DNA of 64,000 nt from positions 82,491 through 146,490 of IMG/VR virus record IMGVR_UViG_3300013104_000002; one strand, 5' to 3'. This stretch comes from a virus. The translations under genes were made by a program, and so were the position numbers. The notes below the pieces were generated by a model that was not told the origin of the DNA, did no database searches, and worked only from the letters and a program-made list of their open reading frames with translations. Positions 4,045-44,900 of the stretch are shown one piece after another (positions within the stretch are counted from its first letter, which is position 1; every line of letters begins with the position of its first letter).

Positions 4045-4076
4045 TTTGGAAGTTACAATTTAATTTCGTATCTTCG
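4045..4076 (+). promoter_or_regulatory. Bacteroidota-type promoter for the kissing-loop leader
   Basis: TTTG at 4045-4048, 20-base spacer, TATCTTCG at 4069-4076. Predicted transcription start near 4083, directly before the two interacting hairpins. Confidence 0.65.
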
Positions 4077-4100
4077 CGCATGTAAAGATGAAAGTTAGTA

Positions 4101-4214
4101 TTTATATTAGTTGTGACGATTTAATATAAGTAGAAAAAATATAAAAAGAAAAGTCCTTTAGAGAATCAAAAAGCAATTATCGTCACCCTGAATTGCTGGT
4201 TCTTTAGAGGCTTT
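4101..4214 (+). ncRNA. Two-hairpin kissing-loop leader RNA
   Basis: Hairpin 1: 9-bp stem 4101-4109/4122-4130 with a 12-base loop. Hairpin 2: 4150-4214, stems 4150-4155/4209-4214, 4157-4167/4198-4208 and 4172-4178/4191-4197, also with a 12-base loop. Loop 1 carries GTGACGAT (4113-4120) and loop 2 carries ATCGTCAC (4179-4186), an exact 8-base complement. The structure lies between a promoter and the gene at 4228, ending 13 bases before its start codon, so it can control translation or stability of that message. Confidence 0.7.
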
Positions 4215-4227
4215 CTCATTTTATACT

Positions 4228-5166
4228 ATGAACAAAATATTTAGATTACCATCAAGGCTTTTTTATGACCTATGGGACAAGGGAAATAACTTCTCTGGTC
4301 TTACTGGCGAAAAGCTTATTGCGGTATACTCTATTTTAAAAAGTTCGAGAGAAAAAGAAGTAAAATATTATTCATATAAATCAAAAAACAATAAAATAAT
4401 TAGTGGTTACTCTTTATTAAGAGCAAAGACTAATTTAAGTCTACATGTAATTCAAAAATATGTTCCTGTTTTAATTGAAATGGGACTATGTTTTATTGAT
4501 AAAAATGGAGATTTTGTTTTACTGGGTAATGAAAAGGTAAAAGAATTATATAACTGTACTAAATTAGTTCCTATTCGTATAGGAAGAAATTTAATTGATA
4601 CGGCGGATAATATTTTATCTGTTAAACTTTTTGCAGCCGAAAAACAACAAAAATTACAATACAAAAAAAGACTAACTCGAAGTGAAATTATAAAGCAAGG
4701 GGTTGATCCAAAAAATTCACAACAATTGAAGAAAGCTCAATCTGTTTTGAAAAGATTTGGTGATATTACTAATTTAAACGAGAAAACTGTTTTATCTGTA
4801 GAGGGATTTGCTGTTCTTAAACATGGCGCGGAAAATAATTTAAAAAATATTAAATCAAGCGGTAATTACATTAAAAGAAAACTTAAAATTAAGGGGCTTG
4901 TTAAAACTAAAAGACAATTTGAAAAAATACAAAAAATGTCTTATGAAGATTATCTTAATTTTAAAAAATTAGGAATGCTAACTTATAGACATACCTATTC
5001 AAATGGTTTCTTAGTAGAAGAAAAAATTTCATCGTTTTCACCTGTTGATTTAATTACTACAAAAGAAGAAAAAATAGTTGAACCTGTTATTATTAAATCT
5101 GAATACAATAATAAGCCTTATTTAGAGTTTGATATGATTGGGTTCTGGATTAACGGAAAAGGATAA
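4228..5166 (+). CDS. Hypothetical DNA-binding-like protein, 312 aa
   Basis: Not recognised. The N-terminal 110 residues look like a winged-helix fold: LTGEKLIAVYSILKSS, then GYSLLRAKTNLSLHVIQKY and LIEMGLCFIDKNGDFVLLGN, where the last part could be the wing. The middle and C-terminus are very basic and helical (residues 140-235). It is alone behind its own promoter and a kissing-loop leader, an arrangement that recalls replication-initiator or regulator genes under RNA control. No catalytic motif is visible. Confidence 0.75.
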   Translation: MNKIFRLPSRLFYDLWDKGNNFSGLTGEKLIAVYSILKSSREKEVKYYSYKSKNNKIISGYSLLRAKTNLSLHVIQKYVPVLIEMGLCFIDKNGDFVLLGNEKVKELYNCTKLVPIRIGRNLIDTADNILSVKLFAAEKQQKLQYKKRLTRSEIIKQGVDPKNSQQLKKAQSVLKRFGDITNLNEKTVLSVEGFAVLKHGAENNLKNIKSSGNYIKRKLKIKGLVKTKRQFEKIQKMSYEDYLNFKKLGMLTYRHTYSNGFLVEEKISSFSPVDLITTKEEKIVEPVIIKSEYNNKPYLEFDMIGFWINGKG

Positions 5167-10157: not shown

Positions 10158-10302
10158 ATGGTATAGAAAATTATTAGGAGGAACTTGGTACAAACATGAA
10201 AATACCTTTCAGTTACCAGGTTTAATATTTGATTATTTTTGGGCTAGATACAATGAATTAAATAGATATACAAAAGTAATAGATATAGAAGAATGGCAAT
10301 AA
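10144..10302 (+). CDS. Hypothetical protein, 52 aa
   Basis: Small ORF overlapping both neighbours: ATG 10144, TAA 10300-10302. Sequence begins MSRFKWYRKLLGGTWYKHEN and ends VIDIEEWQ, giving a tryptophan-rich basic-to-acidic profile. Overlap by 10 bases with the next start supports translation. Confidence 0.6.
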   Translation: MSRFKWYRKLLGGTWYKHENTFQLPGLIFDYFWARYNELNRYTKVIDIEEWQ

Positions 10303-11954: not shown

Positions 11955-11957
11955 ATA

Positions 11958-11989
11958 TTTGCATAATTAAAATAAAAGTATTATATTTG
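11958..11989 (+). promoter_or_regulatory. Strong Bacteroidota-type promoter for the 12-kb ncRNA
   Basis: TTTG at 11958-11961, 20-base spacer, perfect TATATTTG at 11982-11989 followed by C. Predicted start near 11996. No gene begins for about 500 bases, so the promoter mainly serves a non-coding transcript. Confidence 0.8.
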
Positions 11990-11995
11990 CAGTAT

Positions 11996-12490
11996 AAAGA
12001 TTGAGAAAATAAAGTGTGGCTCTTATAGATTAGTTGCGGGTTGATCAGTGTTCCGCGTAAAAAATTAACGAGTCGGCGCAAGTTTAGCTTAGAAATAAGT
12101 TCCAAGTATCACGAAGGCTGGATTAAATAAACTAAAAAACTCTAACCATAATCAATTTTTAACAGAAACAGAAGTTGCCCCAAAATAAATATTCGTAACG
12201 TTAAATCGTAATAGGCGCACGAAGGAGTTATTCCGCGATATTTATCTTCTGTTTTTATTATTTTGCGCGAAATCTAAAAAATATAAAGATCAAGCAGTTG
12301 TATATATTTCAGAATTAGGATCGTAATTACGCAACTTAAAATAAGTAATTCAAAGAAGACTATGAGTTTTTGACGGTTGAGCCTTTAAAACTGTTCCCTT
12401 CCTGCCGATGAGAATGGCTTATTTGGGTTAAAATAATAAAATAACGTATAGAAAGTAAGGGAGTGAAAAGCTTGAAAGTAGCTCCCTTTT
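11996..12490 (+). ncRNA. Candidate long structured non-coding RNA (about 490 bases)
   Basis: A stretch with no convincing ORF between a strong promoter and a terminator-like hairpin. Helices seen: 12035-12040/12052-12057 with self-complementary TGATCA in its loop; GAAA-capped hairpin 12088-12099; long hairpin 12166-12174/12246-12254 continued by 12185-12192/12238-12245 with a 10-base bulge; final hairpin 12457-12463/12482-12488. The words CACGAAGG (12110, 12218), TTCCGCG (12051, 12231) and GGCGCA (12075, 12214) each occur twice, which suggests repeated modules. Phages are known to carry large structured RNAs such as GOLLD and ROOL; no relation to those is claimed. Confidence 0.6.
12457..12490 (+). 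terminator. Terminator-like hairpin ending the long ncRNA
   Basis: Stem AAGGGAG 12457-12463 with CTCCCTT 12482-12488, followed by a short T run. The 5' arm could instead pair with TCCCTT at 12395-12400, giving a possible antiterminator alternative, so some read-through into the gene at 12503 may be regulated. Confidence 0.5.
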
Positions 12491-12502
12491 AAATTAAAAA
12501 TT

Positions 12503-12646
12503 ATGACAAAATTCACTAAAGGCTTCACTTATTTTTATAATGGTCGGAAATTAAAAGATTTCGATGAGTGGGAAAAATATTTTAAGAAAGCTCCAACAAC
12601 AGTAACTACAATAATTAAAAACCTAGAAGTGCATTTATATGATTAA
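12503..12646 (+). CDS. Hypothetical protein, 47 aa
   Basis: Small ORF after the ncRNA terminator: begins MTKFTKGFTYFYNGRKLKDF and ends NLEVHLYD. Its last codons overlap the next start (12639) by 8 bases, which supports translation. Not recognised. Confidence 0.6.
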   Translation: MTKFTKGFTYFYNGRKLKDFDEWEKYFKKAPTTVTTIIKNLEVHLYD

Positions 12647-13993: not shown

Positions 13994-14716
13994 ATGGCGT
14001 TAGAGAAAAATTATCTACAACTTGAATTTGGAACGGGGTTGTTCTTCGACTACAGTGGTGAGGAGAAACAAGGTTATGAAAAACACACATCATCAAAAGG
14101 AAATGTGTCTTATAGAAAGTATTATAAAGACGGAGTATCAGGAGTATTAGAATCTGTTTCTATCTATCAGGGAAAATTCGGAAATCAAATTTCTATGAAT
14201 ATTAAAGATGGGGAAAAAGTATTTTATGTTCCTGTAGATATTGCAGACCAAAAAGGTAATGTCGATACATATGCGGAAAGCTTGACTAAATTATTACCTC
14301 AATTAGTAAAAGGTAAAACTGTAACTGTAAAAGCTTATAATTTTACTCCAGAAGGCGAAAAATATGCTAAAATTGGAGTTTCTATTACTCAAGACGGGGA
14401 GAAATTAAAAAGTGCTCTTACAAATGCTTATTACAAGGAAGGTAAACTGGTTGAAGGAGATATTCCAGCTATTGTTTGGAAGGAAGATGCTTTAGGTAAA
14501 AAGAAACCATCTGCGGTATCGTTAGAAGCCAAAAACGATTATCTACTTAATGTAATTAAGGAACAGACAGAAAGATTAAAATGGGTTCAAGGTGAAAACC
14601 AAACTCCAGATACATCCACTAAATCCGATCCAAAAGCAGTAAAACCTGTTGCTCCTAGCGACGCATTTGAACCAGCCACAAATGTAAATACTGATTATGA
14701 AAATTTACCTTTCTGA
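13994..14716 (+). CDS. ssb: Single-stranded DNA-binding protein, 240 aa
   Basis: An OB-fold-like core covers about residues 1-135 (SIYQGKFGNQISMNIKDGEK, then FYVPVDIADQKG, and VKGKTVTVKAYNFTPEGEKY). The C-terminal 45 residues are a Pro/Ser/Asp-rich linker that ends in DYENLPF, the acidic hydrophobic tip by which SSB proteins recruit replication partners. This tail is the best evidence. It would coat single strands during phage replication together with RecA and the helicase. Strong own promoter at 13771. Confidence 0.75.
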   Translation: MALEKNYLQLEFGTGLFFDYSGEEKQGYEKHTSSKGNVSYRKYYKDGVSGVLESVSIYQGKFGNQISMNIKDGEKVFYVPVDIADQKGNVDTYAESLTKLLPQLVKGKTVTVKAYNFTPEGEKYAKIGVSITQDGEKLKSALTNAYYKEGKLVEGDIPAIVWKEDALGKKKPSAVSLEAKNDYLLNVIKEQTERLKWVQGENQTPDTSTKSDPKAVKPVAPSDAFEPATNVNTDYENLPF

Positions 14717-14717
14717 T

Positions 14718-15243
14718 ATGAGTAATCAGATTTGTAAAAAATGCTTTCTAAATAAATCTTTTGAAGAATATTATAATCAACCTAATTCAAAATCAGGTAT
14801 TCAAACAACATGCAAATCTTGTGTAAAAGAAAGAGTAAAAATTAGACATCATAAGGTTAAGTCAAAACTCAGAATTTGTTGAAAAGGAAAGAATTAGACA
14901 CAAAGAGAAATACTCCAGATTAGGGTATAAAGACTCTCAAAAAGAATGGGATAAAGATAAACCTTGGAAAAATTCACGAATTTATAAATCTCTTAGAAAA
15001 AATTACCCAGATTTAAATAATAATCTTGAATTACACCATTGGAATTATAATGACGAATTTTTAGAAGATATTTTTATTTTAGATGTTAAGGAACACAAAA
15101 GTTTACATAGATACCTAAAATTAGATATTGAAAAAAGACTGTTTTATTTAGAAAATGGAACTTACTTAGATAGTAGAGAGAAACATAAGAATTTTATAGA
15201 AAGTTTAGATTTTAAAATTATTGAGTATACTCCTGTCATGTAA
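14718..15243 (+). pseudogene. HNH homing endonuclease split by a frameshift
   Basis: First part (14718-14882) starts MSNQICKKCFLNKSFEEYYN and has a second pair CKSC, the zinc-finger N-terminus typical of HNH homing nucleases. It stops at TGA 14880. The +1 frame then continues with EKYSRLGYKDSQKEWDKDKP, and LELHHWNYN, the HNH core, to TAA 15241-15243. Together they make one protein of about 174 residues with one base too many between about 14845 and 14880. Real decay, a programmed +1 shift and a sequencing error are all possible. Confidence 0.6.
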
Positions 15244-15275
15244 AAAGTGATGGGAGTTTAAATTAAAAACAAAAA

Positions 15276-44588: not shown

Positions 44589-44620
44589 CTTGCATAATTA
44601 AAATAAAGGTTGTAGATTTG
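44589..44620 (+). promoter_or_regulatory. Strong Bacteroidota-type promoter of the tRNA-like gene
   Basis: CTTG at 44589-44592, 20-base spacer, TAGATTTG at 44613-44620 followed by C. Transcription would begin near 44627, three bases before the tRNA-like acceptor stem. Confidence 0.75.
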
Positions 44621-44629
44621 CAGTATTAA

Positions 44630-44754
44630 GTTGAGATGGTGGAATTAGTAGACACTATATTGAATAAAATCCATTGGTATGACAGGTATGCCTATTTAAT
44701 ATGAAAATGTGAATAATAGTAGCATTTATGTAGGTTCAAGTCCTACTCTTGACT
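44630..44754 (+). tRNA. tRNA-like RNA (leucine-type body) with extended anticodon arm
   Basis: Clear tRNA parts: acceptor stem of 7 pairs 44630-44636/44747-44753, T8, class II type D-arm 44639-44641/44653-44655 as in tRNA-Leu, variable arm 44705-44709/44723-44727, and perfect T-arm 44730-44734/44742-44746 with loop TTCAAGT. In place of a normal anticodon arm stands a 10-bp stem 44657-44666/44693-44702 with a 9-base bulge and a terminal 5-bp hairpin 44676-44680/44688-44692 with loop GACAGGT. Relative to a normal 7-base anticodon loop about 29 bases are extra. It may be an intron, or a tRNA mimic. No CCA is encoded. Confidence 0.65.
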
Positions 44755-44758
44755 TATT

Positions 44759-44774
44759 CTTTTTTTGCGCGAAA
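44759..44774 (+). promoter_or_regulatory. T-run plus GC-box intergenic motif
   Basis: CTTTTTTTTGCGCGAAAA directly behind the tRNA-like gene; another member of the motif class listed at 24821 and 31272. Confidence 0.4.
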
Positions 44775-44787
44775 ATATTAACAATAC

Positions 44788-44882
44788 AACAAAGAGTACT
44801 GAATACAACTTAATAGCGCCATTATCCTTAGGGAGTGAATCAGTGATATAATCGTGGGTAAAATTATCAATAACTCTTTGTT
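44788..44882 (+). ncRNA. Three-way-junction RNA, riboswitch-like leader
   Basis: P1: 10 perfect pairs 44788-44797/44873-44882. P2 starts at once with ACTGA/TCAGT (44798-44802/44840-44844) and contains two small hairpins. P3: 44845-44847/44866-44868 and 44850-44852/44863-44865 with a 2-base bulge and 10-base loop. The structure ends 18 bases before ATG 44901. The coaxial P1-P2 with short joints is like three-way-junction riboswitch aptamers; ligand unknown. Confidence 0.55.
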
Positions 44883-44900
44883 TAACTTTAAAATACTAAC

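What the first reader, a model, noticed from the sequence alone, without database searches (positions are those of the whole stretch)
11996..12490. Undescribed long structured RNA between phoH and a small ORF
About 490 bases without a gene, bounded by a perfect promoter and a terminator-like hairpin, with a 17-bp bulged hairpin, a GAAA-capped hairpin, a hairpin with a self-complementary TGATCA loop, and three words (CACGAAGG, TTCCGCG, GGCGCA) that each occur twice. Large ornate RNAs exist in phages, but I recognise none of their sequence signatures here.
Basis: partly seen in the sequence, partly recalled or inferred. Interest (0 to 1): 0.75.

Follow-up and report, generated by a model that had tools for sequence, protein, structure and literature searches.

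The report
Orphan noncoding stretch in phage
A phage of Bacteroidota-type bacteria has about 500 untranslated bases behind a textbook promoter, probably a transcribed RNA leader or small-RNA cassette; no relative of it was found and its folding is no better than chance, so it is not shown to be a new large structured RNA.

Summary
Window 11955-12502 is really noncoding and is the cleanest long gap of the window. It starts with an exact Bacteroidota-type promoter (TTTG-N20-TATATTTG, 11958-11989). The named hairpins and repeated words exist. They are not beyond chance: the whole stretch folds worse than nearly all its shuffles (z about +2), its best helices rank inside the shuffle range, and the repeated words are borderline (5-7% of shuffles). 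No Rfam family matches. No sequence relative was found in phages, IMG/VR or relatives' genomes. A single-sequence covariance model of the 5' domain found only one match, inside a coding gene.

Comparison with phages whose PhoH is 85-87% identical is informative. Behind phoH they carry nothing, a ~140-nt RNA, or 420-560-nt noncoding stretches holding a tRNA, with the same promoter type in most. So this site is a fast-changing slot for noncoding RNA. Best reading: a transcribed ncRNA cassette or leader, in two pieces (11996-~12262 and ~12265-12495), co-transcribed with the small operon at 12503. Standalone action, attenuation and mere spacer cannot be separated here.

By contrast, a sister phage clade carries a covarying ~260-nt RNA family without an Rfam match. 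It is absent from this window.

The parts
11958..11989 (+). Bacteroidota-type promoter: -33 TTTG, 20-nt spacer, -7 TATATTTG; predicted RNA start about 11994-11996
   Evidence: consensus in PMC2483708 and PMC7366714
11996..12160 (+). possible domain D1, closed by 11996-12004 with 12152-12160; holds the TGATCA-loop hairpin (12035-12057) and the GAAA hairpin (12087-12100)
   Evidence: z -0.64; not beyond shuffles
12164..12260 (+). possible domain D2: bulged hairpin (11 + 8 pairs) followed by T-rich TTTTTATTATTTT; candidate 3' end of a ~265-nt RNA
   Evidence: z -1.19; second-strongest helix, reached by 23 of 200 shuffles
12261..12272 (.). TTTTGCGCGAAA word of a class strongly enriched in this phage, often at gene ends
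   Evidence: 21 in the window on both strands against 0-4 in shuffles
12253..12441 (+). possible domain D3 closed by an A/T-rich 13-bp helix (12253-12265 with 12429-12441)
   Evidence: reached by 53 of 200 shuffles
12457..12488 (+). end hairpin (8 bp, 16-nt loop) 14 nt before the ATG; its 5' arm could instead pair with 12392-12400
   Evidence: not an intrinsic terminator by the scan
12503..12646 (+). 47-aa ORF, first gene of the small operon; a similar ORF in L003 follows its promoter directly

Best explanation
The stretch is a transcribed noncoding cassette. The promoter at 11958-11989 makes an RNA starting at about 11996; part of it may stop or be processed after the D2 hairpin and T-rich run at about 12262, giving a ~265-nt RNA, and the rest runs through a second untranslated segment into the operon at 12503. 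It sits in a slot behind phoH where related phages hold different RNA genes, some with a tRNA. Shown: noncoding, promoter, position, and turnover of the slot. Inferred: transcription, ends, processing, and any function of the RNA itself.
For: Exact promoter and no ORF. G+C above that of other gaps. In relatives the same position holds: L002, promoter and 420 nt noncoding with a tRNA (CAU), Rfam 53.9 bits; L004, promoter by eye and ~560 nt with an irregular tRNA-like element, 32.4 bits; L012-L015, promoter and ~140-nt RNA with z -2.68. L003 has the promoter directly before the homologous ORF. This phage has a second such cassette at 44590-44900: similar promoter, tRNA-like element, TTTTTTTGCGCGAAAA, noncoding segment, ORF.
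Against: No homologue by sequence or model, so no sign of conservation. Folding not beyond chance. The alignment with L002 is not significant (73 of 200 shuffles) nor with L004 (26 of 200). No expression data.
Confidence: 0.45

Rival explanations
1. Regulatory 5' leader (attenuator) of the operon at 12503: AAGGGAG at 12457 pairs either with CTCCC downstream or with TTCCCTT at 12392, switching read-through or translation.
For: Two mutually exclusive pairings of the same arm just before the ORF; same strand and only the promoter upstream; another leader of this phage (4075-4225) is strongly folded, z -3.87.
Against: Helices of that strength are common in shuffles; no terminator by the scan; the homologous ORF of L003 has no such leader.
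Confidence: 0.25
2. Nonfunctional spacer: remnant of a decayed or swapped-out RNA or protein gene, transcribed only because it lies behind the operon promoter.
For: No excess structure, no homologue, complete turnover among phages with 86% identical PhoH; homing-type endonuclease genes nearby, one with a shifted frame.
Against: Phage genomes rarely keep 500 idle bases (general knowledge); G+C is higher than in other gaps; no ATG in the first 366 bases.
Confidence: 0.2
3. A large ornate phage RNA of the GOLLD/ROOL kind in its way of working, unrelated by sequence.
For: Relatives hold a tRNA inside long noncoding stretches at this slot; tRNAs sometimes lie in the GOLLD linker and near ROOL (PMC12286853).
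Against: No tRNA here; no Rfam match; shorter than many GOLLD; no structure signal.
Confidence: 0.1

Closest known systems
GOLLD RNA
   Same: Long phage noncoding RNA; relatives of this phage have a tRNA inside noncoding stretches at the same slot
   Different: No Rfam match; no tRNA here; ~500 nt against often over 800
ROOL RNA
   Same: Long phage noncoding RNA, often near tRNAs
   Different: No Rfam match; no ornate structure detectable
Phage mRNA leaders / attenuators
   Same: Promoter, untranslated stretch, hairpin, then operon on one strand
   Different: Unusually long; the homologous ORF in L003 lacks it; switching unproven
RNA-B (found here: covarying ~260-nt RNA of sister phages, L019-L024, L079-L094)
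   Same: Noncoding, Bacteroidota promoter, same genome neighbourhood, similar size to the 5' piece
   Different: Models R1 and R2 give only noise in the window; different position, about 3 kb before phoH

Membership tests
GOLLD / ROOL / OLE / tmRNA / group I intron (Rfam) | match to the family's covariance model | tested here: not met
   No match at gathering score; only three chance-level unrelated matches up to E = 10; no tRNA or tmRNA by ARAGORN
GOLLD / ROOL | forms a homo-oligomeric RNA cage | not testable with these tools
   needs purified RNA and cryo-EM
RNA-B of sister phages | match to models R1 and R2 | tested here: not met
   best R1 match in the window E = 1; only a 6.1-bit match at 12458-12564 touches the region; R2 none there
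conserved structured RNA (any) | homologues with compensatory base changes | tested here: inconclusive
   no homologue found, so covariation cannot be counted
intrinsic-terminator-ended transcript | G+C-rich hairpin followed by a T run | tested here: not met
   none by the scan; D2 is A/T-rich with a broken T run
Bacteroidota promoter | TTTG and TAnnTTTG about 20 nt apart | tested here: met
   11958-11989

The most novel reading that the evidence does not exclude
The phoH-downstream slot of these phages is a dedicated, rapidly replaced site for large noncoding RNAs (tRNA-bearing in some relatives), and the 11996-12495 RNA is a new family of its own that works as an RNA machine during infection.
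Probability: 0.13. Interest if true: 0.7.

Novelty: new member of a known kind. Interest (0 to 1): 0.33.

Why it matters
If transcribed as predicted, it adds to evidence that large phages carry lineage-specific noncoding RNAs that Rfam does not know. The slot behind phoH gives a defined place to look for them, and a warning that single-sequence hairpins in A/T-rich phage DNA are not evidence of structure.

Tried and rejected
Rfam at gathering and relaxed thresholds: nothing. Sequence search of phage records: only promoter matches and short A/T-rich ones. Word-pair pattern in IMG/VR: 13 hits, all G+C-rich and unrelated. Pattern of promoter plus 5' end: 0 hits. Search of 17 records and the window's own record: only promoter-like or short matches elsewhere. 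Shared words with L002 (GGYGCACGAA, TTCCGCG): alignment not significant. RNA-B homology, suggested by a similar 5' end: rejected by models R1 and R2. Single-sequence model R3 of D1: one match in the nearest relative (E 0.001) lies inside what reads as a coding region on that strand, with many broken pairs; rejected as chance. Scans for close relatives with the downstream ORF and with ribonucleotide reductase gave no close phage.

Full report
What is there. The window is the last 64 kb of a 146-kb virus record. Several genes mark a tailed phage (RecA-like, PhoH, ribonucleotide reductase, GroEL-like), and exact TTTG/TAnnTTTG promoters point to a Bacteroidota host (consensus quoted in PMC2483708); the host itself is inferred. 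Between phoH (stop 11954) and a 47-aa ORF (start 12503) lie 548 bases without a gene. Other long gaps of the window include ones that read as shifted coding frames, so this is the cleanest long noncoding stretch.

The observation. Promoter, hairpins and repeated words are present at the stated places. Whether they exceed chance is another matter. The whole stretch folds worse than nearly all its dinucleotide shuffles (z +2.04; +1.96). The strongest single helices are matched by many shuffles, and repeated GC-rich words occur as often in 5-7% of shuffles. Piecewise z-scores are D1 -0.64, D2 -1.19, D3 +0.26 and end hairpin -1.95. As a control, an RNA family with clear compensatory changes in sister phages scores only +0.55 to -1.77 in the same test, so this test has little power here and cannot exclude structure. 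Three weak facts lean towards an untranslated RNA: G+C of 0.33 against 0.25 in other gaps, no ATG in the first 366 bases, and the promoter itself.

Anatomy. The stretch reads most naturally as two pieces. The first, 11996 to about 12262, can form a domain D1 and a bulged hairpin D2, followed by a T-rich run and the word TTTTGCGCGAAA. The second, about 12265 to 12495, can form D3 and an end hairpin just before the ORF. The same order (promoter, RNA element, T run with GCGCG, second untranslated segment, ORF) occurs at 44590-44900 of this window, where the RNA element is a tRNA-like structure with an enlarged anticodon arm (Rfam tRNA 27.9 bits, just under the gathering score of 29).

Relatives. 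Phages with 85-87% identical PhoH differ completely here. L001 and L003 have no such stretch; L003 has its promoter directly before an ORF like the one at 12503. L012-L015 have the promoter and a ~140-nt RNA whose two ends pair (z -2.68). In L002 one further ORF intervenes, then promoter and ~420 nt with a tRNA of anticodon CAU. L004 has ~560 nt with an irregular tRNA-like element (Rfam 32.4 bits). None is alignable with the window stretch beyond chance. The slot therefore turns over fast. The GIY-YIG gene at 10293 and a frame-shifted HNH-like gene at 14697-15243 show that mobile endonucleases are at hand (the HNH reading is by eye), which could drive the exchange; that is inference.

Search for the family. 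Rfam, phage records, 17 related records, two IMG/VR patterns and a single-sequence covariance model gave no credible relative.

Mechanism. The most likely account is a transcribed noncoding cassette co-transcribed with the operon at 12503, possibly yielding a ~265-nt RNA. An attenuating leader and a nonfunctional spacer are the main rivals. The evidence does not separate them.

Known systems. It is not a detectable member of GOLLD, ROOL, OLE, tmRNA or a group I intron. The tRNA-in-noncoding arrangement of the relatives resembles GOLLD, in whose linker tRNAs are sometimes found (PMC12286853), but the window stretch has no tRNA.

Side result. Sister phages (PhoH about 65% identical) carry RNA-B, a ~260-nt RNA found in 16 IMG/VR contigs by an exact pattern, with no Rfam match in the members scanned, none by that pattern in bacterial and archaeal genomes, and with compensatory changes at 14 of 31 pairs of its 5' half. 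It is a much better candidate for a new structured RNA than the finding itself.

Noticed in passing
L019 1615-1875, L021 1627-1880, L024 1680-1945, L071 438-695, L078 436-690, L079 5166-5412, L093 5300-5548 (- strand): RNA-B: a ~260-nt noncoding RNA of sister phages with strong covariation, in 16 IMG/VR contigs; no Rfam match in the members scanned. Likely a new structured RNA family; several copies lie behind two Bacteroidota promoters, about 3 kb before phoH.
   Followed up: partly
window 44630-44754: tRNA-like structure behind its own promoter with D, T and variable arms but the anticodon arm replaced by a long hairpin (Rfam tRNA 27.9 bits, below the gathering score).
   Followed up: partly
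window 12261, 24815, 26618, 33226, 36207, 37906, 44760, 46856 and others: Words of a T run, five G/C bases and an A run (e.g. TTTTTTTGCGCGAAAA): 21 in the window on both strands against 0-4 in shuffles, several near gene ends or shortly before an ATG. Role unknown.
   Followed up: partly
window 4075-4225: Strongly folded untranslated leader (z -3.87) behind a near-consensus promoter and before the ORF at 4228.
   Followed up: no
L012 4311-4450 and 7709-7860: Two short noncoding RNAs behind exact promoters with strongly paired ends (z -2.68 and -3.91).
   Followed up: no
L002 2200-2615; L004 4727-5285: Long noncoding stretches behind phoH with a tRNA(CAU) or irregular tRNA-like element inside, an arrangement like tRNAs in the GOLLD linker.
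   Followed up: partly
L017 560-960; L022 10380-10540; L023 9650-9850: Further gene-free, structured-looking stretches next to tRNAs in relatives.
   Followed up: no
window 14697-15243: Apparent HNH-type endonuclease gene split by a frame shift (real decay or sequencing error); 14883-15275 is therefore not a true noncoding gap.
   Followed up: partly
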